Positions 15,029 to 31,434 of a DNA stretch of 45,228 nucleotides are shown in pieces (within the stretch, counting starts at the first letter, position 1; every line of letters begins with the position of its first letter). The translations under genes and the position numbers were made by a program. The notes under the pieces are model-generated. The model was not told the origin of the DNA, made no database searches, and was given only the letters and a program-made list of their open reading frames with translations. The DNA comes from Deltaproteobacteria bacterium (lineage in GTDB: Bacteria; JAEEML01). The stretch lies in assembly GCA_016283195.1 (NCBI GenBank), contig JAEEML010000001.1, positions 1 to 45,228 on the forward strand, written 5' to 3'.

Positions 15029-18000
15029 ATGCGTTCAGTAAGTTCTGGCAATATAATAGCTGCTCCGGCTCCAAACTTTAACGAAATTACCCAAAAAGTG
15101 GGCTCGCAGGAAGAGTTTTCCCAAGAAAAAGCCCAGGGTATCGCCGGCGATATAAAAGCCTTTGTCAGTACCGAACAAACTATCACTCCGGAACAAGCAC
15201 AAAAGCTCCTTTCTATTGTAGCTAATCTGGAAAAAGCCGGCATAAAAGATCTAGCCGAAGTAAAAGCTTCTCTCACCACTTTGGCTAAGCCGCAAGATGG
15301 AGTCAAAGCCCCCCAAAAAGATCCGCCGCCAGTGAATAAAGCTTTTGTAAAAGATGCTGAGCCCAAAGGCGCTATTATTAACGATGTCAAAGCCGAGATT
15401 ATCGGCGGACTGGAAGAGCTTGAAGCTGAGCCGGAGCTAAAAAAAGCCAAGAATATCAGCACAGACAAGCTGCTTATAAGCTCCATTAAAAGCCTCGATT
15501 TTGTAAAACCGACCCACTCCGGCCTGGATAACTTTTTGCGCGGCCTGAAAAATTTCATCAAAAACATCTTTACTCCTTGGATTCATTACAAAACTTTGGG
15601 CGAAGAAGATCTTGCCAAACGGGCAGCCGAGTTTGGTAAACAAAATAGCCGCCTGATTTGGCAGCTTATGCGCGAAGGCAAAGAGCAAAAGGTGGTAAAT
15701 GCCCTCACCTATTATATAGATGAAGCTAATCACAATATGAGCTCGGGCGAAGTTTTGCAGGCCGTCGATGTTATGATGGGCCAGTTTAAAAAGGCGGCAA
15801 AAAGCTGGCAAAAAGAAAATCTCGATTATATTAGTGACCTCCCCAAAGGCCACCCGAGCAAGATGTTCTTAAAAGAGTCTTTGCCGGCAATCGCCAAGAA
15901 ATACGATATTAACCTTAGCGGCATCAGTGCCGATGTGGAAAGGCGCATCACCGATAACATTTTAGACCGCCTGAAAACAGCGGATGAGATTATCCCCGAA
16001 GAGCAATTTGCCGAAACAGCGCAGCGTATCATCAGCGAAGAGCTAAAAGCGGCAAAAGAGATCACCGAGGCCACGAAAAAAGGCCATGTTTTGGCTGAGA
16101 TAAAAGAGCCCAAAACCACTAACGACTATGTCAATAATTTGTGCAGTATGCTGGCCAAGGGGATCCCGGATTTAGACACCTTTTTGGCCCAAAATCATGC
16201 CGCCAGCATGGCTATCTATAAAGATAGCGCCGCAAAATTCCTCGAAGTTTTAAAGAATAAACCACACAAGGAATATGGCCCGGATGATCAATTGTGGGAT
16301 AAGCAGCAAATGCTCACCGCCTTTTTGCATAATCTCTCTGATGAACAGCTAAAGGCCATCGCTACGACTCTAACCTCGCCAACTTATGAAGCTTTATGCG
16401 ATGATATATATCGCGCTTATGATCATTTGGACGGCCACCGTGTAGATCCATATGATGCCCGGGCAGCAAAGCTTTACAAAAAAGATATGGAAACATTGCG
16501 AATTCTTCAAGTTGCCGTTTCCGAACTGATGCAAAAACGCGGTATCGCCGAAGGCTTTAACTTTGAGCCTAAGGCAGCTAAAAATGAGAATACTTATAGC
16601 TTTTTGCAAGATTATGTTGCTGCTTTCACCGGAAGCATCCGGCTAGAAACTAAGGCCACTTTTGAGGAATACACCGATGAGATTTTGAAAGGCATCATTT
16701 CACCGGAAACAAGCGAGGAACAGCTGGAAAATCTTTTTATGGAGATGCGCCTCTCCTTTGACGAAGGGCTCGTGGATGAAGAAAAAATAATGCTGCAGAT
16801 CCAGGAAGATTTTAACAGCTACTTTAGCACTATGCTAGGCGAGCGCATAAAACACCTGGGCGCCCAGGATCTTTTGACTCTCTATCGCGGTATAAATAGC
16901 CCAAAATTTATGACTCTGCGCATTAAAGCCAATCATGACCTAGGTGAGACCGGCGACCCGCGCAAAGGCATGTTGCTAAGTTCTCTAAATATCATCGAGG
17001 AAATGGTAAATATGGAAATAGCCGAAAGAGCTATTTTTAATAACGAAAAGAAGAGCGACGGCCTCACCGGCCAGCAGGCAGCCATTTTGGCGAGTGCCGA
17101 CCAGGCCGGCTTTAAGCAAGAGCTTTCGGAGCAAAAAGATGAATTTTTGGCCGGAAAAGCCGGCGAGTGGCAAGACAGCACAGCTGAAGAAGACCACAAA
17201 ATGCAGGAACAATACGGCATTACCCCGGCGCAGTTTCAAGAAGTTATCGATAGCACAGATTTCACCATCAATATACCGCCCTCACTCATTTTTGGCAATG
17301 ATTCGCCCTTCTTTAAAAACGGCAAATTACAACCTGAGGCACTAAAGCTCAAAAACGTCTTTCAGCTCCCCAATGACGAACGCGGAGATTTATACAAAAA
17401 GCGGCGCGTTGTCACTGAACAAGCGCTTTATCCGCAAATGAAAAGTTTTGAAAAGAGCGAGGATCCCAAAGCCGAAAATCACCCCATTTCCGGCGCTCTC
17501 AATATCGGCAAGCTGGAAGACGGCGCGGCAGCAAGCTACAGCCAGGATCTAACTACATGCCATGTTGTGCTGAAAAATGAGGTTAAAAAACGCACCCGCT
17601 TTACCCCGCGTGATGCCTTCCACTCGCTGCGTTTGCAAATAAATGATAAAAACATCGCCAAAATGCGCAACTTGCTGAAAGAGGTACGCGCCGGCACTTC
17701 AAAATACGGCCAATTCACTCCGCAATTTGCGGCGCAGTTTGATGATGCGGCTATAGAAGCCTTTCTTAATGATCTAAACACCTCTTTTCCCAGCAAAACC
17801 CTGGTTCTGGGCTCCAAAGAATTTCGCGGTGACCGCCTGGACCTCATCGTTCAGGACCGCATAAAGCTTAAAACCGACGATGACAAAAACGGCAACAACC
17901 AAGAATTAATAGCTCTATTAACCCTCATGGCTTTTACCGAAAAGAGCTCCGATGTACCGGTTAGCCTGGATAACATCAAAAAACTATTTAAATATCGCAA

Positions 18001-18220
18001 TGATATGTATAAGGGCATTGCCGAAATGGCTAATGACCCCGATAATTCCACCTTCTCCTTTAATGATTATATAGAGGGCGAAATCTTTGGCGGTGTCGAT
18101 CTCACTAAAGATATTACGGAAATCGTCTTTAACTCCTTTAGACCCCAAGATTTTCCCGACTATAAAGACCGCGTTGCCCAGCTGGAAAAAATCGGCATAA
18201 AAGTAACCGTAAAGATCTAA
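15029..18220 (+). CDS. Large paralogous protein 1, DUF3626-like C-terminus
   Basis: The 1063-residue protein has no signal peptide or membrane segment. The N-terminus is polar (MRSVSSGNII). Most of the chain is predicted helical and charged, with conserved blocks such as PWIHYKTLGEEDLAKRAAEF and SPKFMTLRIKA. The C-terminal part from about residue 815 carries HPISGALNIG, then a CHVVLKNEVKKRTRFTPRDAF block, and near the end FNDYIEGEIFGGVDLTKDI. I recognise these as resembling DUF3626 landmarks (YGALN, FGS.H..L, YIEAQ.HG), a family of unknown function. The gene starts 30 bases after the membrane protein with AAGGAGG. No separate promoter is evident in that gap. It is a tandem paralogue of the next gene. 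An effector or toxin role is possible but unproven. Confidence 0.7.
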   Translation: MRSVSSGNIIAAPAPNFNEITQKVGSQEEFSQEKAQGIAGDIKAFVSTEQTITPEQAQKLLSIVANLEKAGIKDLAEVKASLTTLAKPQDGVKAPQKDPPPVNKAFVKDAEPKGAIINDVKAEIIGGLEELEAEPELKKAKNISTDKLLISSIKSLDFVKPTHSGLDNFLRGLKNFIKNIFTPWIHYKTLGEEDLAKRAAEFGKQNSRLIWQLMREGKEQKVVNALTYYIDEANHNMSSGEVLQAVDVMMGQFKKAAKSWQKENLDYISDLPKGHPSKMFLKESLPAIAKKYDINLSGISADVERRITDNILDRLKTADEIIPEEQFAETAQRIISEELKAAKEITEATKKGHVLAEIKEPKTTNDYVNNLCSMLAKGIPDLDTFLAQNHAASMAIYKDSAAKFLEVLKNKPHKEYGPDDQLWDKQQMLTAFLHNLSDEQLKAIATTLTSPTYEALCDDIYRAYDHLDGHRVDPYDARAAKLYKKDMETLRILQVAVSELMQKRGIAEGFNFEPKAAKNENTYSFLQDYVAAFTGSIRLETKATFEEYTDEILKGIISPETSEEQLENLFMEMRLSFDEGLVDEEKIMLQIQEDFNSYFSTMLGERIKHLGAQDLLTLYRGINSPKFMTLRIKANHDLGETGDPRKGMLLSSLNIIEEMVNMEIAERAIFNNEKKSDGLTGQQAAILASADQAGFKQELSEQKDEFLAGKAGEWQDSTAEEDHKMQEQYGITPAQFQEVIDSTDFTINIPPSLIFGNDSPFFKNGKLQPEALKLKNVFQLPNDERGDLYKKRRVVTEQALYPQMKSFEKSEDPKAENHPISGALNIGKLEDGAAASYSQDLTTCHVVLKNEVKKRTRFTPRDAFHSLRLQINDKNIAKMRNLLKEVRAGTSKYGQFTPQFAAQFDDAAIEAFLNDLNTSFPSKTLVLGSKEFRGDRLDLIVQDRIKLKTDDDKNGNNQELIALLTLMAFTEKSSDVPVSLDNIKKLFKYRNDMYKGIAEMANDPDNSTFSFNDYIEGEIFGGVDLTKDITEIVFNSFRPQDFPDYKDRVAQLEKIGIKVTVKI

Positions 18221-18350: not shown

Positions 18351-21300
18351 ATGCGCTCAGTAAGTTCAGGTAACATAATAGTCGCCCCAGCGCCAAATTT
18401 TGAAGAAATTACCCAAAAAGTGGGCACCCAAGAAGAATTTTCCAAAGAAAAAGCCCAGGGTATCGCCGGCGATATAAAAGACTTTGTCAGTACCGAACAA
18501 ACTATCACTCCGGAACAAGCACAAAAGCTCCTTTCTATTGTAGCTAATTTGGAAAAAGTCGGCGTAAAAGATCTAGCCGAAGTAAAAGCTTCTCTCACCA
18601 CTTTAGCTAGGCCTAAAGATGGCCTAAAAGCGCCGCAAAAAGATCCGCCGCCGGTGGATAAAGCCTTTGTAAAAGGTGGTGAACCCAAAGGCGCCGTCAT
18701 CACCGGTATGAAAGCTGATATTATCGGCGACCTCGATGCGCTGGAAGCTGAGCCGGAGCTTAAAAAAGCCAAGAACATCAGCACCGAAAAGCTGCTTATG
18801 AGCTCCATCGCCAAACTCGATTTTGTAAAGCCGGCCCACTCCGGCCTGGATAACTTTTTGCGCGGCCTTAAAAATTTTATTAGAAATATCTTTACTCCTT
18901 GGATTCATTACAAAACTTTAGGAGAAGAAGACCTATCTAAACGGGCAGCCGAGTTTGGTAAACAAAATAGCCGCCTGATTTGGCAACTTCTCCGCGAAGG
19001 CAAAGAGCAAAAGGTGGAAAATGCTCTCACCTACTATATAGATGAAGCTAACCACAATATGAGCTCCGGCGAAGTTTTACATGCTGTCGATATTATGATG
19101 AGCCAGTTTAAAAAAGCGGCCAAAAGCTGGCAAAAAGAAAATCTCGATTATATTAGCGACCTGCCCAAAGGTCACCCGAGCAAGATGTTCTTAAAAGAGT
19201 CACTGCAAACTATCGCGCAAAAATACGATATTGACCTCAGCGGCATCAGCGCCGATGTAGAAAGAAACACTACCGATCGCATTTTAGACCGCCTGAAAAC
19301 AGCGGACAAAACTCTCCCCAAAGAGCAATTTATCGAGACGGCGCGACAAATTATCAGTGAGGAGCTAGAAACAGCCAAAGCCATCACCGCAGCCACCAAA
19401 AAAGGCCATATTTTGGCCGAAGTAGCCGAGCCTAAAGATACTAACGATTATATAAATAATTTGTGCAGCATGCTGGGCAGAGGCATTCCCGATTTGGATG
19501 CCTTTTTGGCCCAAACTAATGCGGCCAGCACTGCCATATATAAAGACAGCGTCTTAAAATTCAAGGAAGTTTTAAAGGAAAAGCCTCATAAAGAATATGG
19601 CCCCGATGATCAATTGTTTGATAAGCTGCAAATGCTCAAAGGCTTTTTGCAAAATCTCTCTGATGCTGAGCTGAGAGAAATAGCCAAAAATGTCACTTCT
19701 CCGGCTTATAGCGACCTATGTGATAAAGTATATGAAGCTATAGAACATTTAACCGTTCAGGGAGCAAATCCATATGACAATCGGTCCGAACAAATATGTA
19801 AAAGGACCTCGGAAACATTATACATTTTCCAAGTAGCTGTAAAAGAGCTCGCCGAACAGCGGGGCATTGATATAGAATTTAACTTCAAACCACAGCCGGT
19901 TAAAGATATAGATACCTATAGCGCCTTTACAACTGCCATAGAAACACTCACAGCCAATATCAAAGCGGAAGCACATGGATTTTTCCAAAACTGCACTGCC
20001 GAAATTTTGCGCGCTATTACTGCACCGGATATTAGCGGCGAAAAGCTCACCGACCTCCTTATAACCATGCGCCTTGCCTTTGACAATGACACTGTAGGCA
20101 CACCGGAGTCTCTGGCGTTGAGACAAGAAAAATTCAACAGCTATTTTGCCGCGCTCCTGGCTGAACAGCTAAAACACATGGGCGCCCAAGATCTTCTGGC
20201 TCTCTATAGCGGCATAAATAGCCCAAAATTTATGACTTTGCGCATTAAAGCCATGGCCGCTCAAGATAACATTGACAAAAACATGCTCTTAAACTCCTTA
20301 AATAACTTGGAAGCGGCAGTTAACATGGAAATAGCCGAGAGAGCTATCTTTAATGACCAAAAGAGCGACGGGCTCAGCGGCCAACAAGCCGCCATTATTG
20401 CTCATGCCGATAAGGCCGGCTTCAAAAAAGAACTGGCTGAACAAAAAGATGAATTTTTAGCCGGGAAGGCCGGCGAGTGGCAAAACAGCGCCGAAGAAGA
20501 ACTGATGATACAGCAATATGGCATAACAGCCGAGCAATTTACCAAAGTTATTGATGAAGCGCCCTTTACTATCAATCTGCCCCCTTCCCTCTTCTTTGGT
20601 GAAGATTCACCCTTCTTCAAAAAAGGCAAATTACAAAAAGAGGCCTTTAAGCTTAAAAATGTCTTTGAACTTAAAAAAGATAAGCGCGGCGAGACCTATC
20701 AAAAACGGCGAATTTTGACCGAACAAACGCTCTACCCGGAGATGAAAAGCTTTGAAAAAGGCGAGAAGGTAAATCCGGAGAATCACCCCATTTCCGGCGC
20801 CCTCAATATCGGCAAAGCAGCTGGCGGCGCAGCCTTGTTTTATAGTGAAGACGATAACGGTCAAGGTACTATTTGCCACATCGTCCTGAAAAATGAAGTT
20901 AAAAAACGCACCCGCTTTACCCCGCGCGATGCCTTCCACGCGCTGCACTATGAAATAAACAAAGAAAATATCGACAAATTGCGCACCATGCTCAAAGAGG
21001 TGCGGGCCGGCGGTTCACAATATGGCGAATTTACAAAAGAATTTAAGGAAGGGCTCACAGATGATGTCATTGAAGCTTATCTGAAAGATCTTTTGGATAA
21101 TTTTGGCGGCAAAAAGCTGGGGATCGGCTCCGATGTATATAACGGCGACCGCATTGATCTAATCGCTGACCGCATTAAACTCAAGGTAAAAGACGATATT
21201 GAATCTAACAATAACTCTCTGGTCGGCATGCTGGCCCTAAAAGCCTTTATCAAAGATAGCTCCGATGTACCGGTTTCCTTTGAAAACATTAAAAAGCTCT

Positions 21301-21548
21301 TTAAATATCGCGACGATATGCTCAAAAACATGGCTACTTACATAGCTGATCCCGATGATGTTAACAACAAAATGCTCTTTAGTGATTATATTGAGGGTGA
21401 GATTTTTGGTGGTGTTAATCTGGCCGAAGATGTTAGCGAGATTGTCTTTACAGACTTTAACGCCAAGGCTTTTCCCGATTACGAAGAGCGGGTGGAGCAG
21501 CTTGAAGCCATGGGCATCAAAGTAAGATTCAATAAAATAACCGACTAA
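18351..21548 (+). CDS. Large paralogous protein 2, DUF3626-like C-terminus
   Basis: The 1065-residue product is a full-length paralogue of the preceding gene, colinear throughout. The N-terminal 430 residues are highly similar, about 450-600 are much more divergent, and the C-terminal 450 are again close. It has the same landmarks: HPISGALNIG, FTPRDAF and SDYIEGEIFGGVNL. The duplication includes the Shine-Dalgarno and its spacing (AAGGAGCTATTTC before ATG). Unlike copy 1 it has its own consensus promoter. Some DNA blocks are almost identical (about three differences in 110 bases near 18454, matching 15132), while others differ by 15-20% or more. The last residues (VRFNKITD) differ from copy 1 (VTVKI), and the next gene starts one base after its stop. 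Function unknown. Confidence 0.7.
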   Translation: MRSVSSGNIIVAPAPNFEEITQKVGTQEEFSKEKAQGIAGDIKDFVSTEQTITPEQAQKLLSIVANLEKVGVKDLAEVKASLTTLARPKDGLKAPQKDPPPVDKAFVKGGEPKGAVITGMKADIIGDLDALEAEPELKKAKNISTEKLLMSSIAKLDFVKPAHSGLDNFLRGLKNFIRNIFTPWIHYKTLGEEDLSKRAAEFGKQNSRLIWQLLREGKEQKVENALTYYIDEANHNMSSGEVLHAVDIMMSQFKKAAKSWQKENLDYISDLPKGHPSKMFLKESLQTIAQKYDIDLSGISADVERNTTDRILDRLKTADKTLPKEQFIETARQIISEELETAKAITAATKKGHILAEVAEPKDTNDYINNLCSMLGRGIPDLDAFLAQTNAASTAIYKDSVLKFKEVLKEKPHKEYGPDDQLFDKLQMLKGFLQNLSDAELREIAKNVTSPAYSDLCDKVYEAIEHLTVQGANPYDNRSEQICKRTSETLYIFQVAVKELAEQRGIDIEFNFKPQPVKDIDTYSAFTTAIETLTANIKAEAHGFFQNCTAEILRAITAPDISGEKLTDLLITMRLAFDNDTVGTPESLALRQEKFNSYFAALLAEQLKHMGAQDLLALYSGINSPKFMTLRIKAMAAQDNIDKNMLLNSLNNLEAAVNMEIAERAIFNDQKSDGLSGQQAAIIAHADKAGFKKELAEQKDEFLAGKAGEWQNSAEEELMIQQYGITAEQFTKVIDEAPFTINLPPSLFFGEDSPFFKKGKLQKEAFKLKNVFELKKDKRGETYQKRRILTEQTLYPEMKSFEKGEKVNPENHPISGALNIGKAAGGAALFYSEDDNGQGTICHIVLKNEVKKRTRFTPRDAFHALHYEINKENIDKLRTMLKEVRAGGSQYGEFTKEFKEGLTDDVIEAYLKDLLDNFGGKKLGIGSDVYNGDRIDLIADRIKLKVKDDIESNNNSLVGMLALKAFIKDSSDVPVSFENIKKLFKYRDDMLKNMATYIADPDDVNNKMLFSDYIEGEIFGGVNLAEDVSEIVFTDFNAKAFPDYEERVEQLEAMGIKVRFNKITD

Positions 21549-21549
21549 G

Positions 21550-24500
21550 ATGACCGTAGACAAGAAAGCGTACCAAGAAGAAGCAACACTCACAATGACT
21601 TTTGACCAAATTATTCAAAAAATTAGGAATACATCCCCAAATGCCAAAGATGCGGGAACTCGCTTTGAAACACTGATTCAGCGTTGGTTTTTAGCTACTC
21701 CTCTTTATCAAGTCCAAAAGGCCTGGCTTTGGGCTGATTTTGCCAAAGCAATAGGAGAAAAAGCCATTGATTTAGGCATTGATCTTGTGCTGAAAATGGG
21801 TATAGATGAGTTTTGGGCAGTTCAGTGTAAATTCTACAACAATGGTTCACACGTTAACGAAGAAGATGTTTCTAATTTTCTTGGTTACCAAGGTAAAGAA
21901 TTCACTTTGAACAATCAAACTCATTCATTTTCCCGCTTTGTTTGGATAGACACTGATGCTGTTTGGAGCAAGAATGCCAATGACTATGTCCAGGGTAGAG
22001 AAAATTTTACACGTATCAGCAAAGATTTTTTGAGAGCTTCAAATGTCGATTGGGATGCCATAATCAGAGGAGAGGAAACACGCTCTAAGCCCAAACAACT
22101 TAGAGACTACCAAAAAGAAGTTCTCCACAAAGCCGAAGCACATTTCAAAAATAATGAGCGTGGTAAAATCATTATGGCCTGTGGTACAGGCAAGACATTG
22201 ACTTCACAGCGCATTGCCGAAGCCGTGGCAGGAACTCAAGGAAGTCTTATTCTCTATTGTGTCCCATCAATTGCTTTACTTGGGCAGACTTATCAATCAT
22301 GGGCGGAAAATGCGCAAAAATCACCAGAAGATACAAAGCCAGCGTCTTTATTTGCCATTGGTGTGTGCTCTGATAATCACGCATTAGAAAAAAAAGCCCA
22401 AAATGGTGATTTCATCGCTGAAAACCTTATCGACTCACCATTACCAGCAACTACTGCCTTCACATCTGTCAAAGACCGTATTCTGGCAGCGGCGCAAATG
22501 CAAAAAGAAGGCATGACTGTTGTCTTTACAACATATCAATCGCTACAGGTAGTCGCCAATGCACAACAGGCAGTACTGGCTGAAACAGGCGGCTCATTTG
22601 GCGTTTTCGATATGGTCATTTGCGACGAGGCACACCGAACGACCGGGGCGGCTAAAGCGGGGCTGGAATCCAGCTTTATGAAAATTCACGACAATGATTT
22701 CATCAAAGCCCAAAAGCGTCTTTATATGACCGCAACCCCTAGAATTTATACGACAAATGCTAAAGCCGACGCCAGCAAAATGGCGACCGATGCGGTAATC
22801 TGCTCAATGGATGATGTTGCTACTTATGGTGAAGAAATTGCGCGGATTTCGTTTGGGCAGGCTGTCAATCTTGGCTGTCTCAGCGATTACAAAGTCATCA
22901 TTCTAACCGTTGATCCCAAAGATTTACCTGATAAAGTCATCGCCAGCTTTGAAAGTAACGATAAATTACTTGATTTACCTACAGCTACGCGTCTTGTTGG
23001 AGCAATACATGGCTTATCCAAGCAACTTGTTGGTGATGATGGTCGTACTCTGGCCGAGGATCCCAAACCATGCACCCGTGCCTTGGTTTTTACCTCGGAA
23101 ATAGGCAATATTGAAAAACTTGGTTCATCAAAAAATATTGCGGCTATGTTTCCAGAAGTCAGCAGTCTTTATTTACAAGCCAAAGAGACAGCAGAAGAAC
23201 GGCAAAAATATGTCTCTATCGAATGTAAACATGTTGACGGTACTATGAATACCAGTGAACGCAATGCTATCCTGACCTGGCTGGCCGGTGAGAATAGCTC
23301 AGATGATAATTCTACTGTCTGCCGGGTTGTGTCAAATGTGCGCTGTCTTTCAGAGGGGGTGGATGTTCCAGCTCTTGATGCCGTGATTTTCATGGCGCCA
23401 AAAAAATCTCAAATTGATATAGTTCAATCTGTTGGACGCGTAATGCGCAACTTCAGACGTGGCGAGGAAGGCGGCAAGAAATATGGCTATATTATATTGC
23501 CAGTAGCATTGCGGCCCGGCGAAAATATCAACGAAGCGTTGGAAGAGAGTAATCGTTTTAAAGAAGTATGGAATGTTCTTTGTGCGTTGCGTTCCCATGA
23601 TGAAAATTTCAATGCACAGGTCAATGCTATTCGCTTATCAATAGACGATTCTTCAAGTTATACGCCCAAAGCAGGAAAAATTGATGTTAATTCCGGCAAA
23701 TTTATTGTCGGTACAATTGGTGACCAAAAGAATCCAATTGATGATAACGGTGAAAACTTACTGATGAGTGATGAGCAAAAAGCAAAAATCAGAATTGCTC
23801 ATCAACTCGAACTTTTCGAACCTGAACAACAAAAAATATTCGCCAAACTTGTTGATAAAGTTGGTACGCGTAATTATTGGGAAACCTGGGCTTCTGATGT
23901 TGGCAAAGTGACTCTGGATATTCTGGCACATATGAAGATGATCATCGAGCGCCATACCGATGTGCAGAAGGAATTTAATCATTTCATCAAATCGCTAAGG
24001 GAAAATATCAATGAAAGCATTGATGAAACCCAAGCGGAAGAAATGCTGGGACAGCATATCGTCATCGGGCCGATCTTTGACGCACTCTTTGCCAATTACC
24101 ACTTCAATGAAAATAATGCAGTCAGCATAACACTCTCCAAGATGGTTAATCTGTTAAAAGAGCACGGTCTGGAGAAGGAGACCACAGTTCTCAAAACTTT
24201 CTATGCCAGCATTAAGAATCAGATCGGTAGCGTGAACAGCCCCAAGGCCAAGCAGCAGCTGATTAAGGACCTTTATAATCGGTTCTTTGCTGTGGCTTTC
24301 AAAAAGACAACCGACCGGTTGGGTATTGTTTATACGCCAGTGGAGTGTGTGGACTTCATCATCAAAAGCGTTGAGCACTTGCTGCAAAAGGAATTTGGGC
24401 GATCACTTTCCGACGAAAATGTACATATTCTCGACCCCTTTGTCGGTACTGGAACCTTCATCACCCGTCTTTTGCAATTGGGCATCATCAGGGACAAAGA

Positions 24501-26583
24501 CCTACTGCGCAAATACCAAAAAGAGATCCACTGCAACGAGATTGTTTTGTTGGCCTACTATGTGGCCGATGTAAATATTGAAACCGTCTTCAATTCAATG
24601 CGCAGTCACTTGCCTGGTGATTATGTTACCTATAATAATATCTGTCTGACCGATACCTTCCAATTGGCTGAGAGACAGCGTACACTTAACGATCTGATGA
24701 TGAGGGAAAACAGCGAGCAGATTGAACGGCAGCGCAATGCTCCAATCCAGGTTATTATCGGCAATCCGCCTTATTCGGTTGGACAAAAGAGCGGTAACGA
24801 TAATAACCAAAATCTCAAATATCCCAAATTGGACAAAAGAATTGCCGAAACCTATGCCGCAGGTTCCACAGCCACTAATAAAAATGCCATGTACGATTCC
24901 TATATCAGAGCTTTTCGCTGGGCTGCGGATCGGATCAGCAATGAGCGCGGCGGGATTATTGGGTTTGTGACCAACGGTGGTTGGATTGAAGGAAATGCCG
25001 CCGCCGGCATGAGAAAGTCCCTTTGTAATGAATTTGATAGCATTCATGTCTTTGATTTGCGGGGTGATCAGCGCACTCAAGGTGAAATGTCCAGAAAAGA
25101 GGGTGGTAAAATCTTTGGTTCTGGCTCCCGAGCAAAAGTCTGTATGACTTTTTTGGTGAAACATCCCAATAAAGAAAAACATGATGGCAAAATTTACTAC
25201 CATGACATTGGAGACTATCTTACCCGTGAAGCCAAACTAAAAATTCTGGAAGACAATGTTTCCATTGCCTCCAAAGATCTCACCTGGCAGCAGCTGACCC
25301 CAGATGAGCACGGTGACTGGCTCAATAAACGGCTGGGCGGTGCTTATGACAATTATATCCGCATTGGTGACAAAAAGGATAAAGCCGGAGAAGTTGATAA
25401 GGTCTTTGGGGATTGCTATTCAAGAGGGCTAGCAACTAGTCGTGATGTATGGTGCTATAATTATTCAGAAAAACGCATAAAGAAAAATATTGCTGGCTGC
25501 ATTGATTTTTATAACCAACAAAGGGAACTCTATGCCAATGGCGCAATTACCGAAATACCTCGTGATCCAGCCAAGATTAGCTGGGCCAGAGGCTTAGAAC
25601 AATTATTTGTAAAAAATCACACAATTAATGAAGATGATGGTTGTTACGTAAATTCTATGTATCGACCATTTATCAAGTCAAAATGCTACTATGCCAAAGA
25701 CTTAAATGAAATGATTTATCAGATTCCAAAAATCTATCCCTTTGCCGTCATGCAAACTCATCCCCAGCATGAGGTGAACAGGGTGATTTCTGTTAGTGGC
25801 CCGTCTGGAAAAAAAGACTTTGCGTGTTTAATGGTTAACCAACTTCCATGCTTGGATATGATCGAAAAAGGTCAATGTTTCCCACTTTACGTGTATGGAA
25901 CCGACGAAAAGCCTCAAAAAGCCCAAGGTGATTTATTCGACCAGGAAGCAAAAGATCTAGATTTGGAATCAAGCCGCAAGTCAGGCATTACCAACTGGAT
26001 GCTTAAGCAAACCAGAGGGAAATATGGTCATGACGAGATAACCCAGGAAGACATTTTCTATTATGTTTATGGGCTGTTACATTGCCAATCATACCGTGAC
26101 AAATACCAGAATGATTTTAAAAAAGCCCTGCCAAAGATCCCATTTGTTGAGAAATATGAAGATTTTCAGGCCTTTAGCAAAGCTGGCCGCGAATTGGGCG
26201 ATTTACACTGTAATTACGAGAGCGTCCCCATGAATACCACTGCCCAGATTGTGGAAGATGGGAGCGGCGACTACACTTTGAGCAAATTGAAACCGGCCGG
26301 CAAAGGCAATTTTACCGAGCTGCAATATAACAGCCATGTTAAAATTACGAATATTCCGGCCGAAGCCCACGAATATATCGTCAATGGCCGCTCCCCGCTG
26401 GGCTGGATGATTGACCAGTATCAGGTTTATATCGACAAAGATTCCGGCATTAAAAATGACCCCAACGAATGGTGCCAGGAGCACGATAATCCCCGGTACA
26501 TTCTGGAACTGATTCTGCGGCTGATTGAAGTGAGCGTGCGGACAATGGAGATTGTGAAGAATTTGCCGAAGGTGGAGGTGTGA
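21550..26583 (+). CDS. Type ISP-like single-chain restriction-modification enzyme
   Basis: The 1677-residue protein has the domain order of Type ISP enzymes such as LlaGI/LlaBIII. First is an Mrr-type PD-(D/E)XK nuclease (Asp78, then QCK at 92-94). A superfamily-2 helicase follows (ACGTGKT with K215; DEAH 359-362; QSVGRVMRNFRRG motif VI), then a coupler. An N6-adenine methyltransferase comes next (DPFVGTGTF from 962; NPPY 1072-1075), and last a C-terminal target-recognition region. It would methylate one strand of its site and use ATP-driven translocation to cut unmodified DNA. The annotated start is ATG 21550, one base after the previous stop and without a Shine-Dalgarno. ATG 21595 (MTFDQIIQKI) is a plausible alternative. 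Codon use and GC are lower than its neighbours, consistent with horizontal transfer. Confidence 0.9.
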   Translation: MTVDKKAYQEEATLTMTFDQIIQKIRNTSPNAKDAGTRFETLIQRWFLATPLYQVQKAWLWADFAKAIGEKAIDLGIDLVLKMGIDEFWAVQCKFYNNGSHVNEEDVSNFLGYQGKEFTLNNQTHSFSRFVWIDTDAVWSKNANDYVQGRENFTRISKDFLRASNVDWDAIIRGEETRSKPKQLRDYQKEVLHKAEAHFKNNERGKIIMACGTGKTLTSQRIAEAVAGTQGSLILYCVPSIALLGQTYQSWAENAQKSPEDTKPASLFAIGVCSDNHALEKKAQNGDFIAENLIDSPLPATTAFTSVKDRILAAAQMQKEGMTVVFTTYQSLQVVANAQQAVLAETGGSFGVFDMVICDEAHRTTGAAKAGLESSFMKIHDNDFIKAQKRLYMTATPRIYTTNAKADASKMATDAVICSMDDVATYGEEIARISFGQAVNLGCLSDYKVIILTVDPKDLPDKVIASFESNDKLLDLPTATRLVGAIHGLSKQLVGDDGRTLAEDPKPCTRALVFTSEIGNIEKLGSSKNIAAMFPEVSSLYLQAKETAEERQKYVSIECKHVDGTMNTSERNAILTWLAGENSSDDNSTVCRVVSNVRCLSEGVDVPALDAVIFMAPKKSQIDIVQSVGRVMRNFRRGEEGGKKYGYIILPVALRPGENINEALEESNRFKEVWNVLCALRSHDENFNAQVNAIRLSIDDSSSYTPKAGKIDVNSGKFIVGTIGDQKNPIDDNGENLLMSDEQKAKIRIAHQLELFEPEQQKIFAKLVDKVGTRNYWETWASDVGKVTLDILAHMKMIIERHTDVQKEFNHFIKSLRENINESIDETQAEEMLGQHIVIGPIFDALFANYHFNENNAVSITLSKMVNLLKEHGLEKETTVLKTFYASIKNQIGSVNSPKAKQQLIKDLYNRFFAVAFKKTTDRLGIVYTPVECVDFIIKSVEHLLQKEFGRSLSDENVHILDPFVGTGTFITRLLQLGIIRDKDLLRKYQKEIHCNEIVLLAYYVADVNIETVFNSMRSHLPGDYVTYNNICLTDTFQLAERQRTLNDLMMRENSEQIERQRNAPIQVIIGNPPYSVGQKSGNDNNQNLKYPKLDKRIAETYAAGSTATNKNAMYDSYIRAFRWAADRISNERGGIIGFVTNGGWIEGNAAAGMRKSLCNEFDSIHVFDLRGDQRTQGEMSRKEGGKIFGSGSRAKVCMTFLVKHPNKEKHDGKIYYHDIGDYLTREAKLKILEDNVSIASKDLTWQQLTPDEHGDWLNKRLGGAYDNYIRIGDKKDKAGEVDKVFGDCYSRGLATSRDVWCYNYSEKRIKKNIAGCIDFYNQQRELYANGAITEIPRDPAKISWARGLEQLFVKNHTINEDDGCYVNSMYRPFIKSKCYYAKDLNEMIYQIPKIYPFAVMQTHPQHEVNRVISVSGPSGKKDFACLMVNQLPCLDMIEKGQCFPLYVYGTDEKPQKAQGDLFDQEAKDLDLESSRKSGITNWMLKQTRGKYGHDEITQEDIFYYVYGLLHCQSYRDKYQNDFKKALPKIPFVEKYEDFQAFSKAGRELGDLHCNYESVPMNTTAQIVEDGSGDYTLSKLKPAGKGNFTELQYNSHVKITNIPAEAHEYIVNGRSPLGWMIDQYQVYIDKDSGIKNDPNEWCQEHDNPRYILELILRLIEVSVRTMEIVKNLPKVEV

Positions 26584-26649: not shown

Positions 26650-28056
26650 ATGCGGTTCATTCTAAATAACCTCGGCAAGATCAAATGTGGAGAAATGTCA
26701 TTAGCGCCTTTGACACTTATATGTGGCAATAATAATGCCGGTAAAACATATGTAACTTATGCGTTATATGGATTTTTTAAACTGTGGCACGAATTTTTAT
26801 CTGTGGATATAGATGATTCAACTATTGAAACTCTATGGCATGATGGCCATGTTGAACTCGATATGAATAATTTTAAAGAACAGGCGCAAGATATTTTAAA
26901 TCGCGGATGCAAAGATTACATCAAATATATGCCACGTGTGTTTGCAACAAAGCCGGATCGATTTAAAGATACTGCCTTTGGGATTAAACTTGAAAACGAT
27001 GATATTCGGTTAAATAGATCGTATCATCAGGATTTTGGTTCAGGAACCAAAAATATTGTTTCTATCGATAAGAAAACTGATTCGACAGTTGTTACTGTTT
27101 CTCTATTGGTTGAATCCAGCGAGGCAAAAATAACAAAGCAATCAGCAAAAAAATATATTGAGATTATTTTGACGGAAATGATATTTGGAGAGCTTTTCCC
27201 TAAAACCTATATTGCGAGTACTGAGAGAACAGGTGCGGCTATTTTCCGAAGAGATCTTTACTTCGCACGCAATAGACTTCTAGAGCAAATTGGAAACACA
27301 ACAGGTTCAAATAGTTCAACAGATATTATAGAACTCGCTTTTCGGGCTCATAAGAACGACTATCCTTTACCAGTTCAAGATAATGTTGAATTTTCACGTA
27401 GTCTTGAAGACTGTGGACCCAATCAAAGTTATATAGCAAAGCAACATCATGAAATTCTTGAATCTTTTGCCGATATTATCGGTGGAGATTATCAGGTAAA
27501 AAAGGATGGTTTGTTTTATATCCCCAAAGGTAGTAAGGGAACTAGACTATCTATGCAGGAAAGTTCAAGCTCTGTCAGATCTCTCCTGGATATAGGTTTT
27601 TATCTTCGCCACCAAATTCAAAAAGGTGATTTTTTGATGATTGATGAGCCGGAACTTAATTTACATCCTTCAAATCAGCGCAGAATGGCTCGGCTCTTTG
27701 CCCAGCTTATCAATGCCGGTATAAATGTTTTCGTTACAACACATAGTGATTATTTAATTCGAGAACTAAACACACTTATCATGCTAAATAGTGACAGAGA
27801 ACAATTAAAACAATTAGCCACGATGGAAAAATACAAACAAGAAGAACTTCTTATACCATCACAGCTCAGTGTTTACATTGCAAAAGAGGCCTCTGTTGCA
27901 TTACCAGACAAGAAAAAGAAGCAAATTTGTCAAACACTTGTCCCTGTAAAAATTGATTCCAAATATGGAATGGAAGTTACAACGTTTGACGAAACCATCA
28001 GAGAAATGAACCGGATTCAAGATAAAATACTAGATTTGATTGAGGAAGAATCATGA
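26650..28056 (+). CDS. AAA_15/OLD-like ATPase
   Basis: The 468-residue ABC/SMC-type ATPase is of the AAA_15/AAA_21 (OLD-like) group. Walker A is GNNNAGKT (26-33), and Walker B is FLMIDEPELNLHP with D332-E333. A switch His365 sits in VTTHSDYL, and a signature-like QESSSSVRSLLD lies before Walker B. No TOPRIM nuclease domain follows, unlike true OLD proteins; the C-terminal 80 residues are charged and unassigned. AAGGA lies ten bases before ATG. Its TGA overlaps the next start (ATGA), so the two products are translationally coupled and probably act together. The gene lies directly downstream of a restriction-modification gene in a low-GC block, which suggests a role in phage defence. The exact system is not recognised. 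Confidence 0.8.
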   Translation: MRFILNNLGKIKCGEMSLAPLTLICGNNNAGKTYVTYALYGFFKLWHEFLSVDIDDSTIETLWHDGHVELDMNNFKEQAQDILNRGCKDYIKYMPRVFATKPDRFKDTAFGIKLENDDIRLNRSYHQDFGSGTKNIVSIDKKTDSTVVTVSLLVESSEAKITKQSAKKYIEIILTEMIFGELFPKTYIASTERTGAAIFRRDLYFARNRLLEQIGNTTGSNSSTDIIELAFRAHKNDYPLPVQDNVEFSRSLEDCGPNQSYIAKQHHEILESFADIIGGDYQVKKDGLFYIPKGSKGTRLSMQESSSSVRSLLDIGFYLRHQIQKGDFLMIDEPELNLHPSNQRRMARLFAQLINAGINVFVTTHSDYLIRELNTLIMLNSDREQLKQLATMEKYKQEELLIPSQLSVYIAKEASVALPDKKKKQICQTLVPVKIDSKYGMEVTTFDETIREMNRIQDKILDLIEEES

Positions 28057-28730
28057 AAGATTATTTCTCTGACAAGCAAGTATTACAGGAACTTTTAAAT
28101 GATAGTATGTTTCTTAAACATACTCAAAGCAATACTGTAACTTTAACAGAAGAACAGGCCGAAGACTCGGAAATTGTTATTACAAATTTACCAAATGACA
28201 TTATTATTATAAAATCAGATGAATTTAGATGCACTCGTCGCCCATCTAATAGAGAGATCAGTGAGTTTAAAAACTTGAAAGGCACAGAGGAAGGACAAAA
28301 AAAATCCGATATAGCCAATCGTGTTTTTAAAGGCAATTATGGAGAAAATGACTGTGCGGACTATGTATTATTGTCGCCATCATTAAAGGTCATTTTATTC
28401 CTTGAATTAAAAAGTACTAAAGATACAAAATCTGGTGCACACATAATTAACCAGCTTAAAGGTGCACAATGCTTTGTCGAGTGTTGCAAGATATATGCGA
28501 CACATTTCATTGAAAAAGCACGTCCAGATTTTCTAAACGATTATCATCAACGGTTTATTAAGTGTCTAAACACAAACAAAAAATATGTTGCACTAGATAC
28601 AGAACGCAGACCACGTACTACATGTACACAAAAAAAAGAAAAACTTGTTCCTGATTCGCCAGACAAAGCGCAAACTATAAGACAGCGTAATGTTTCTTTT
28701 AGACACATAGCATGGATAAAAAACAGTTGA
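28053..28730 (+). CDS. Putative PD-(D/E)XK-type nuclease partner of AAA ATPase
   Basis: The 225-residue soluble protein has no family I can name. Its central part reads as a restriction-endonuclease-like core: Asp103 in CADYVLL, a hydrophobic strand, then E118-L-K120 in LFLELKSTKD, and Gln134 in a following helix (IINQLKGAQ). The D-x14-ExK spacing fits the PD-(D/E)XK superfamily. The N-terminal 95 residues are charged and may bind the ATPase or DNA. The start overlaps the ATPase stop by 4 bp (ATGA). I infer a two-component ATPase-nuclease defence module next to the RM gene. Alternatives are an accessory of the RM enzyme or a regulator. The nuclease call is from motif reading alone. Confidence 0.6.
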   Translation: MKDYFSDKQVLQELLNDSMFLKHTQSNTVTLTEEQAEDSEIVITNLPNDIIIIKSDEFRCTRRPSNREISEFKNLKGTEEGQKKSDIANRVFKGNYGENDCADYVLLSPSLKVILFLELKSTKDTKSGAHIINQLKGAQCFVECCKIYATHFIEKARPDFLNDYHQRFIKCLNTNKKYVALDTERRPRTTCTQKKEKLVPDSPDKAQTIRQRNVSFRHIAWIKNS

Positions 28731-28740
28731 GTTTTGCTTT

Positions 28741-31434
28741 ATGACAGAAAACAAATCCCCCCATTTTTCCATCCGCAACCTGGTTTCCAAGAGCCAATTG
28801 GAGCGGGCCGCTGCGCTTCTCACCGCCGGGGCTATTAAATCCATTAACCAAACGGATGACGGCTATAGCGCCTTTTATTATGACGATACTTCCTTTCCCC
28901 ATTTGGTCTCCATTGCCATTAGCGGCGAACAGATTTACGGCTCCTGCGACTGTCTCTCGGCCAGCCCGGCCGAGCCGCTCTGTGACCACGCGGTAGCTCT
29001 CTATATTGCCACTAGCCCGGACGCCAAAGAGCTCGTAAAAGTGGGCGATACCCGCCTTATTTTGCCCGCGCCGGAGGAGAGCCTCTCTGAAGCCAGAGAG
29101 CGGGAAATCACGCGGCGCAAGGAGCGGGCTCTTTCGGATATTGCCGATGTCATTCCGCAAAAAAGCCGCTCGGACGGCAGCCGCCCTTTTACCGTCACTT
29201 CGCTCTCCGGCCAGCGTTATGAGGTAATTCTGCACAGCCACAACATAGCGGCTAATGATTGCAACTGTCCGGATTTAGAGATAAATCAGCTGGGTACTTG
29301 CAAGCACATCGAGGCTGCGCTCTCCTATAACGGCGGCCAGGAAATAGAGCTCTCCCGCCCGCTGCTCTATGTGGAATACGAGCGGGGACTGGCTGAACTG
29401 GCCCTACTGACTCAAGCGGATATAGAGCCAGAACTTGATGATTTATTTGATAAAAATACGCATATATTAAAAGAGCTCACCCCAGATACCTGGCAAACAC
29501 TTAACACTTTTGCCGGGGAGGGGATGCTCACTATCAGCCGGACCGCCGCCCTTCTGCTGGACTCTTTTAAACATGAATGTGCTTCAAATGATAAATCGGC
29601 TGAGCTTTTGGCCACTTTGGAAAAGAGCGGCTACAAAGTGCCAGCCTTTAAAGGATCTCTGAGCCAAACAGAAAAACAGGCGCTCACTTTTGCCTTGCGC
29701 CATCAGGCTGCCTGGCTCACTGCCCCGCTGGATTGGGGCAAAAGTGTGGTCACCCTGGCCGCTATAGCCGTTTTGGCCGCTGAAAAGCCCACCAAAGCGC
29801 TGATTGTCACTATTGAACCGCTACTAACCGATTGGCGCAAAAAGGCCGCCGCTTTTTTAAATATTCCTATCTATAGCGGCACTGAGAGTGCCGGCACTAC
29901 TTTCCTTGGGGAAGAAACTTTTATCCGCGTTATCACTTATGAAGAAGCGCTGCGCAATTGCGAAGAACTATCTGATTTTACAGCTGATTTACTCATAGTT
30001 GATGAAGCGCAATATATCAACAACTGGCGCTCACCGACCGGAAGAGCCATTACGCGCCTAAAGGCCACGCGCCGCCTGCTGCTCACTAGCTGCGATTTAC
30101 TGGCCGACCCGGATGCTGTTTTTTCTATTATGCAAATAATAGACCAAAAAGTGCTGGGCCCACTCTGGCTTTTTAATCAGCGCTTCATTGCTTTTGACAG
30201 CGATGGCAAACCAACATGGCGCTCAGAAGATGCCATTTTGAGCCATCTTGCCGCTCATTGGTGGCGCCGCCCGCTCTTAAGTGAGCGCAGTGCTCAGGAT
30301 TTGCAAATTCTCTCTTGTTATACCCAGCCGGAGGAGCAGTATTTTACCCAATACAAAAAAACTATAGCCGCTATTAACATACCTGACTCCTCCGGCCTAT
30401 TTGCCACTGATTCATCGTGGCACACTCTGCTAGATGATGTAATACGAGCCCTTTATTTTGGCGGCAAAAGCAACGCTGCCGTAGCCCCCAAAGTAGCCCT
30501 TTTAATCCAGCTCTGGCGCGGTCTCTTTTCGCGCACCGACCGCCACTATGTTGTTTTGGCCCATAGCGAGCAGATTTTGCACCTGGCTACTGCCGGCAAC
30601 AACTATCTGGGCTCAAACTGCTATATTTTATATAGCGATTTGCCGCCAGCTTCACGCCTGGCCAAACTGGAGGCTTTTCATAAAGCTCATGAGGCGGCCA
30701 TACTCTTTTGCACCGATTACAACCTAGATGATTTGCACTTTAATGATGCCAAGCTCTCTTTTATCTTTTTTGACCTGCCCTGGCACCCGTTATGGCTCAA
30801 ACAGCGCCTTGATAAAATTGCCGCCTACCCGGCTCTGGCCCTAATTTACCAAGATACCGTTGAAGAAAAATTGCTGGATTTTTATGCCAAAAACAGATCT
30901 GCTTTCACAGCTCTACCAAAAGAGAGCAAAAAAATTGATAATTCCCTGCCCATAAGTGACAAATTGGAAGCTCTTATGCGCGAAATTTTAGCTACTCTTT
31001 CCGCTAGCAGCCCATTTTCTTTACAAAAACGCGCAAATAATAATACCTCCGCCATATCCTCCACCCGCTTTAGGCGCACATCACTATTATTTGACTTTAG
31101 CTCTGCTCCCAAAGAGGCCGGCAAAGATATACCGCCGCCTAAAGCCAAAAGTAGCAAGAAAAAAAGCCCGGCAAAAGCGCCGGAAATACCGAGCGACACG
31201 CTTACTTTAGACAATCTATTGGCTTTAACGGCTAATTTAGCCAGTGCGTGGAAGTTAGAAGGCAATTACCCGGAATTATTGTTAAAAAATGCCTATATCC
31301 AAAATCTCTCCGACGAAAAGCTGCTCTTTTTACATGAACTTACGGCTATTTTTGGCCTTACCTGCCGTGGCGAGCCGGTTCCGGAAGCGCTAAAGAGACA
31401 TTTTGCGGGAAATAGAGCAAAGTTAAATTATTAA
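28741..31434 (+). CDS. Double SWIM zinc-finger SNF2-like ATPase
   Basis: The 897-residue protein has two SWIM zinc fingers (C69-x-C71-x9-C81-x-H83 and C174-x-C176-x10-C187-x-H189). A Swi2/Snf2-type helicase region follows, from about 310 to 760. The first RecA lobe keeps a GKS P-loop (K334 in LDWGKS) and DEAQ (421-424), followed by a SNF2-like LLLTSCDLLADPDAVF where TGTP is usual. The second lobe is degenerate: the glycine-rich GVGLNL motif is lost and motif VI reads QRLDKI without the usual arginines. The tail has a Lys/Pro-rich linker (about 800-820). Codon use matches the chromosomal genes, not the low-GC island upstream. The start lies ten bases after the nuclease-like gene with no clear Shine-Dalgarno. 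A DNA-binding or remodelling role is likely. Confidence 0.75.
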   Translation: MTENKSPHFSIRNLVSKSQLERAAALLTAGAIKSINQTDDGYSAFYYDDTSFPHLVSIAISGEQIYGSCDCLSASPAEPLCDHAVALYIATSPDAKELVKVGDTRLILPAPEESLSEAREREITRRKERALSDIADVIPQKSRSDGSRPFTVTSLSGQRYEVILHSHNIAANDCNCPDLEINQLGTCKHIEAALSYNGGQEIELSRPLLYVEYERGLAELALLTQADIEPELDDLFDKNTHILKELTPDTWQTLNTFAGEGMLTISRTAALLLDSFKHECASNDKSAELLATLEKSGYKVPAFKGSLSQTEKQALTFALRHQAAWLTAPLDWGKSVVTLAAIAVLAAEKPTKALIVTIEPLLTDWRKKAAAFLNIPIYSGTESAGTTFLGEETFIRVITYEEALRNCEELSDFTADLLIVDEAQYINNWRSPTGRAITRLKATRRLLLTSCDLLADPDAVFSIMQIIDQKVLGPLWLFNQRFIAFDSDGKPTWRSEDAILSHLAAHWWRRPLLSERSAQDLQILSCYTQPEEQYFTQYKKTIAAINIPDSSGLFATDSSWHTLLDDVIRALYFGGKSNAAVAPKVALLIQLWRGLFSRTDRHYVVLAHSEQILHLATAGNNYLGSNCYILYSDLPPASRLAKLEAFHKAHEAAILFCTDYNLDDLHFNDAKLSFIFFDLPWHPLWLKQRLDKIAAYPALALIYQDTVEEKLLDFYAKNRSAFTALPKESKKIDNSLPISDKLEALMREILATLSASSPFSLQKRANNNTSAISSTRFRRTSLLFDFSSAPKEAGKDIPPPKAKSSKKKSPAKAPEIPSDTLTLDNLLALTANLASAWKLEGNYPELLLKNAYIQNLSDEKLLFLHELTAIFGLTCRGEPVPEALKRHFAGNRAKLNY

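What the first reader, a model, noticed from the sequence alone, without database searches (positions are those of the whole stretch)
26650..28730. Coupled AAA_15 ATPase and D-x14-ExK protein: candidate undescribed defence module
Seen: an OLD-like ATPase without TOPRIM, overlapping by ATGA with a 225-residue protein carrying D103-x14-E118-L-K120 plus Gln134. Both lie in a low-GC block directly after a Type ISP RM gene. Known: AAA_15 ATPases pair with nucleases in anti-phage systems (PARIS with a TOPRIM-like partner, Septu with HNH). The partner here looks like a PD-(D/E)XK nuclease instead. Inference: an ATPase-gated nuclease system.
Basis: partly seen in the sequence, partly recalled or inferred. 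Interest (0 to 1): 0.68.

Follow-up and report, generated by a model that had tools for sequence, protein, structure and literature searches.

The report
Known ATPase–nuclease phage-defence pair (PDC-M47/PD-T4-4)
The two genes are a genuine and widespread bacterial anti-phage module, an ATPase sensor coupled to a PD-(D/E)XK-type nuclease, but it belongs to a kind already catalogued and partly tested (PDC-M47, PD-T4-4, WonAB), so it is a new member of a known family and not an undescribed system.

Summary
In detail: A (26650-28056, 468 aa, OLD-like ABC ATPase, no TOPRIM) overlaps B (28053-28730, 225 aa) by ATGA in a low-GC block after a Type ISP RM gene. The D-x14-ExK string alone was weak (88% of shuffled copies of B hold a D-x8-22-[DE]xK). 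Homologues make it convincing: across 80 aligned B proteins D103 and Q134 are invariant, K120 79/80, E33 79/80, E118 74 E + 5 D. AlphaFold2 (pLDDT 84) puts them where a PD-(D/E)XK site belongs. All 72 related loci with a complete B start it within -38..+32 nt of the ATPase stop. So 'ATPase-gated PD-(D/E)XK nuclease' is well supported.

'Undescribed' is not. The pair matches PADLOC's candidate PDC-M47 (A 7.5e-187, B 1.3e-30) and is homologous on both genes to PD-T4-4, found by phage selection in E. coli. The literature describes OLD-ABC ATPase + REase dyads, shows for the related WonAB that the nuclease lysine and ATPase are needed and that infection aborts through translation arrest, and reports such dyads as BREX backup effectors; I also find this pair nested in BREX operons. 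Link to Type ISP genes is not recurrent. Verdict: ordinary new member; trigger and target unknown here.

The parts
26650..28056 (+). Gene A: OLD-family ABC ATPase, 468 aa, no TOPRIM; Walker A aa 26-33, ERTG 192-195, OLD-type signature region 302-311, Walker B 332-340, H-loop 363-367, C-terminal extension about 380-468
28053..28730 (+). Gene B: predicted PD-(D/E)XK-fold nuclease, 225 aa; E33, D56, D103, E118, K120, Q134; starts in the ATGA overlap with A
28053..28056 (+). ATGA stop/start overlap coupling A and B
21550..26583 (+). Neighbour, not part of the module: Type ISP restriction-modification enzyme, 1677 aa (Mrr-like nuclease, helicase, coupler, N6 methyltransferase, specificity domain)
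   Evidence: no homologue near the related pairs

Best explanation
A two-gene abortive-infection module of the PDC-M47 / PD-T4-4 / WonAB superfamily (OLD-ABC ATPase + PD-(D/E)XK 'REase'). A dimerises around ATP and acts as the sensor and gate; B is a metal-dependent nuclease held with A through A's C-terminal extension and inactive or unstable until A senses infection, after which B cuts a nucleic acid and stops phage production by arresting or killing the cell. Shown here: gene coupling, homology on both genes, intact ATPase motifs, conserved PD-(D/E)XK residues in the expected secondary-structure positions. Shown in relatives by others: phage protection for PD-T4-4; for WonAB the need for both genes, the ATPase motifs and the nuclease lysine, translation arrest and intact host DNA. 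Inferred for this locus: complex formation, trigger, substrate (perhaps tRNA or rRNA by analogy with WonAB) and activity.
For: PADLOC: A = PDC-M47A 7.5e-187, PD-T4-4_A 2.2e-154; B = PDC-M47B 1.3e-30. Of 73 B homologues 73 match PDC-M47B and 49 also match PD-T4-4_B models. hhalign of the B family to PD-T4-4_B-type proteins: 98.2%, E 3e-14, catalytic positions in register; control B versus A 0.1%. Conservation: D103 80/80, Q134 80/80, K120 79/80, E33 79/80, E118 74 E/5 D. AF2 model of B pLDDT 84: D103 precedes strand 104-108, E118/K120 in strand 113-121, Q134 in helix 128-152. ATPase fold nearest to solved Septu/retron PtuA and Rad50. 72/72 loci have B at -38..+32 nt from the A stop. Nested in BREX operons or beside RM genes in several genomes. 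Literature: PMC9519451, PMC12137116, PMC12839542.
Against: Foldseek of the B model gives no match below E 0.5 in PDB or 0.05 in the viral library; PD-(D/E)XK nucleases only crowd the weak top of the lists. No Pfam family passes its cut-off for B. The window B departs from the family at R101 (C), Y144 (C), W153 (I) and K100 (D), and in the closest relative L011 the B frame is interrupted. No complex was modelled.
Confidence: 0.82

Rival explanations
1. B is a direct DNA-cutting restriction-like nuclease guided by A, degrading phage DNA rather than aborting infection.
For: PD-(D/E)XK enzymes are mostly DNases; the pair sits next to DNA-modifying systems here and in BREX and type I loci.
Against: In the related WonAB, host DNA stays intact, phage DNA replication proceeds nearly normally and translation stops; no modification gene is part of the pair in most loci.
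Confidence: 0.2
2. The pair is not an independent system but an accessory of the adjacent Type ISP restriction enzyme.
For: 66 bp gap, same strand, same low-GC region.
Against: No Type ISP homologue near any of the 87 other loci; homologous pairs occur alone on 4.3-4.8 kb plasmids; GC3 of the pair (0.28, 0.24) differs from the ISP gene (0.425).
Confidence: 0.06
3. A toxin-antitoxin or regulatory pair in which B is not a nuclease, or a decayed pair.
For: Weak fold matches for B; B in L011 is broken; window B lacks R101, Y144 and W153 of the family.
Against: Near-total conservation of the D/E/K/Q set over very divergent proteins, both reading frames intact in the window; for WonAB simple sequestration was ruled out by the authors.
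Confidence: 0.08

Closest known systems
PDC-M47 (PADLOC phage-defence candidate)
   Same: A matches over nearly its full length and B over its C-terminal two thirds; same order and coupling.
   Different: Window B is longer (225 versus about 185 aa; an insert around residues 60-90) and departs at several family residues. PDC-M47 itself is a candidate by PADLOC name; no paper in the held library uses the name.
PD-T4-4 (Vassallo et al. 2022)
   Same: Homologous ATPase (PD-T4-4_A 2.2e-154) and, at profile level, homologous nuclease with the same D/(D,E)/K/Q positions.
   Different: Window B does not itself match the PD-T4-4_B models; identity between window B and PD-T4-4_B-type proteins is 15-22%.
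WonAB (Adams et al. 2025) and 'OLD-ABC ATPase + Novel REase' (Krishnan et al. 2020)
   Same: Same architecture, ATPase motif set (Walker A K, Arg, Walker B E, H-loop H) and PD-(D/E)XK effector; the authors place PD-T4-4 in the same larger family.
   Different: Sequences not at hand, so orthology was not tested; [quoted passage not shown]
PARIS (AriA/AriB)
   Same: OLD-ABC ATPase sensor plus a separate nuclease; AriA models match A at 6.6e-29.
   Different: Partner is PD-(D/E)XK-like, not TOPRIM.
Septu / retron PtuAB
   Same: Closest solved ATPase fold (E about 1e-8).
   Different: PtuB is an HNH nuclease; sequence match far weaker than to PDC-M47A.

Membership tests
PDC-M47 | ATPase matching PDC-M47A | tested here: met
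   620 bits, 7.5e-187, residues 1-461 of 468
PDC-M47 | Adjacent partner matching PDC-M47B | tested here: met
   104.5 bits, 1.3e-30; ATGA overlap
PD-T4-4 | ATPase matching PD-T4-4_A | tested here: met
   513 bits, 2.2e-154, but below PDC-M47A
PD-T4-4 | Partner matching PD-T4-4_B | tested here: not met
   No PD-T4-4_B match for window B at E<1; 49 of 73 members of its family do match and the families align at 98.2%: sister family, not the same subfamily
PD-T4-4 | Protection against phage | not testable with these tools
   Known for the founding system from PMC9519451; needs plaque assays for this locus
WonAB | Direct orthology to WonA/WonB | not tested
   WonAB sequence not recovered (primer scan of viral contigs)
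PD-(D/E)XK superfamily | Conserved D ... (D/E)xK plus following-helix Gln | tested here: met
   80-sequence alignment
PD-(D/E)XK superfamily | Core fold with the catalytic residues on the central strands | tested here: inconclusive
   AF2 secondary structure fits; Foldseek not significant
PARIS | TOPRIM partner (AriB) | tested here: not met
   B has no AriB or TOPRIM match
Septu | HNH partner (PtuB) | tested here: not met
   No HNH or PtuB match in B
OLD / Gabija (GajA) | TOPRIM domain fused to the ATPase | tested here: not met
   A has 468 aa and no TOPRIM match; AAA_15/AAA_21 are the only families above cut-off

The most novel reading that the evidence does not exclude
The pair is a backup suicide switch triggered by phage anti-restriction proteins that disable the neighbouring methylation-based system (Type ISP here, BREX or type I elsewhere), as PARIS is by Ocr, but using a PD-(D/E)XK effector that cuts a translation RNA. 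The nesting between brxC and pglX and beside RM genes fits this; the general idea of OLD-ABC backup effectors is already published, and the trigger and target remain unshown.
Probability: 0.2. Interest if true: 0.5.

Novelty: new member of a known kind. Interest (0 to 1): 0.2.

Why it matters
It adds one divergent member, from a lineage with no close relative in the searched set, to a broad but little-studied class of ATPase-gated nucleases. The alignment gives a precise residue set (E33, D56, D103, E118, K120, Q134 in B; K32, R193, E333, H365 in A) for testing the class, and the nesting of PDC-M47 pairs inside BREX operons supports the published backup-effector idea. A surprise would come only from knowing the trigger and the RNA or DNA target.

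Tried and rejected
Recovering wonAB with a published qPCR primer as an exact pattern in viral contigs: no hit. Searching relatives and phylum of the window genome: no close relatives held, single copy only. Foldseek of B: not significant. PDB sequence profile search of B: only Hjc at E 1.6 besides chance matches. Looking for E. coli relatives of the Serratia pair, to identify the founding ECOR58 PD-T4-4: no match. Linkage to Type ISP genes: rejected. Mobile-element boundary repeats around 21-29.5 kb: only short imperfect repeats, no convincing boundary. Promoter and terminator scans not far above shuffled counts, not used. PARIS, Septu and OLD/Gabija membership rejected for lack of the defining partner or domain.

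Full report
Observation. Two + strand ORFs lie where stated: A 26650-28056 (468 aa) and B 28053-28730 (225 aa), sharing ATGA. A is an OLD-like ABC ATPase (Pfam AAA_15 1.6e-26) with Walker A GNNNAGKT at 26-33, Walker B DEPELNLHP at 332-340 and H-loop TTHSD at 363-367, and no TOPRIM. The gene before it, 21550-26583, is a Type ISP RM enzyme. The pair is clearly AT-richer (GC 0.357 and 0.335, GC3 0.28 and 0.24) than the window (0.471) and also than the ISP gene (0.43, GC3 0.425), so pair and ISP gene were probably not acquired as one unit (inference).

Is the motif more than chance? On its own, no: 10% of shuffled copies of B contain the exact D-x14-E-x-K and 88% contain some D-x8-22-[DE]xK. The proof comes from relatives. 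In all 72 loci with a complete B, B starts between -38 and +32 nt from the ATPase stop, 40 of them at -1. Most of the other loci are cut by the contig end or have an interrupted, masked or shortened B frame. In the 80-sequence B alignment, which includes the window and seven plasmid or phage pairs, D103 and Q134 are invariant, K120 and E33 are kept in 79, E118 is E in 74 and D in 5, D56 is D in 74 and E in 6.

Fold. AlphaFold2 on 73 B sequences gives pLDDT 84 and pTM 0.79. D103 lies just before strand 104-108, E118 and K120 in strand 113-121, Q134 in helix 128-152, followed by strand 165-173: the order expected of a PD-(D/E)XK core. Foldseek finds nothing significant, but the weak top lists are crowded with PD-(D/E)XK proteins (FAN1, DdmD, XisH, Nt.BspD6I, SdaI, HincII, FokI, Avs3; Cas4, VRR-NUC and exonucleases in the viral library). 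Among weak Pfam matches of the family are HSDR_N, HSDR_N_2, DUF2726, PDDEXK_9, VRR_NUC and Hjc, which I know as members of the PD-(D/E)XK clan. [quoted passage not shown] A's model (pLDDT 82) is nearest to PtuA of Septu and retrons and to Rad50.

What it is. PADLOC names it: A matches PDC-M47A (7.5e-187) and, next, PD-T4-4_A (2.2e-154); B matches PDC-M47B (1.3e-30). All 73 aligned B proteins match PDC-M47B and 49 also match PD-T4-4_B models; the B family and PD-T4-4_B-type proteins align at 98.2% probability, E 3e-14, with D, E, K and Q in register, while the control comparison B versus A gives 0.1%. PDC-M47 and PD-T4-4 therefore look like sister branches of one two-gene family, and the window pair falls in PDC-M47.

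Literature. PD-T4-4 was found by selecting for phage resistance in E. coli (PMC9519451). Adams et al. 2025 (PMC12137116) describe WonAB, an OLD-ABC ATPase with a PD-(D/E)xK partner: both genes are needed, ATPase mutants (K34A, R182A, E300A, H333A) and WonB K71A lose protection, activation stops translation while DNA stays intact, and the authors place it with PD-T4-4 and the 'OLD-ABC ATPase + Novel REase' operons of Krishnan et al. 2020 in one larger family. The matching residues here would be K32, R193, E333 and H365 in A and K120 in B (my mapping by motif; WonAB sequence not aligned). A 2026 BREX survey (PMC12839542) reports OLD-ABC ATPases paired with HNH, PD-(D/E)XK or PIN nucleases as BREX backup effectors.

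Neighbourhood. No Type ISP homologue lies near any of the 87 other loci. Several pairs are nested in BREX operons: in L015 the order is brxC, 13 bp, A-B, 3 bp, pglX, all on one strand; L020 has brxC before the pair and L053 pglX after it; six to seven upstream neighbours in all match BrxC and six downstream ones PglX. The closest relative, L011 (59% in A), has a IIG/DrmMI-type methyltransferase upstream, and L042 a type I specificity subunit. PD-T4-4-type pairs sit alone on 4.3 and 4.8 kb plasmids of Klebsiella and E. coli and in a P2-like Vibrio phage between the CI repressor and a recombinase. It is thus a mobile, self-sufficient module that is often, not always, found in defence loci; many cyanobacterial copies sit beside housekeeping genes.

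Mechanism. Most likely A is an ATP-gated sensor and B the effector of an abortive response. Coupling, homology and active-site conservation are shown here; need for both genes, translation arrest and lysine dependence are shown by others for WonAB; complex, trigger and substrate of this pair are inferred. Points of caution: window B departs from its family at K100, R101, Y144 and W153 (D, C, C, I), and B of its nearest relative is interrupted, so reduced or altered activity in this branch is possible.

Verdict. New member of a known kind; low interest.

Noticed in passing
window 15029-18220 and 18351-21548: Two tandem paralogous proteins of 1063 and 1065 aa, 68% identical, with only weak DUF3626 matches; the second ends 1 bp before the Type ISP gene starts. 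Function unknown.
   Followed up: partly
window 28741-31434: SNF2-type helicase with a weak SWIM zinc-finger match starts 10 bp after B on the same strand, but with GC 0.49 against 0.335 for B, so the right edge of the low-GC block is abrupt.
   Followed up: partly
L015 4436-13444; also L018, L026, L053, L020: PDC-M47 pair nested inside BREX operons between brxC and pglX, with gaps of about 3-14 bp (brxC and pglX confirmed in detail for L015; in part for L020 and L053; the rest by gene sizes and family counts).
   Followed up: partly
L005 (pSCU-105-5) and L008 (pKPN6): ColE1-like plasmids of 4.8 and 4.3 kb whose only sizeable cargo is a PD-T4-4-type ATPase-nuclease pair.
   Followed up: no
L009 3001-5032: P2-like Vibrio phage 1.202.O carries a PD-T4-4-type pair between its CI repressor and a recombinase gene, apparently a cargo slot.
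   Followed up: no
L090 9407-9949 and L065 9361-9930: B proteins with altered catalytic residues: K to Q (Poribacteria MAG) and E to N (Omnitrophota MAG), possible inactive or altered effectors.
   Followed up: no
L010 2998-5578: Enterococcus faecium plasmid ATPase relative with no annotated partner gene; an IS256 transposase gene follows it directly, next to an aminoglycoside resistance gene.
   Followed up: no
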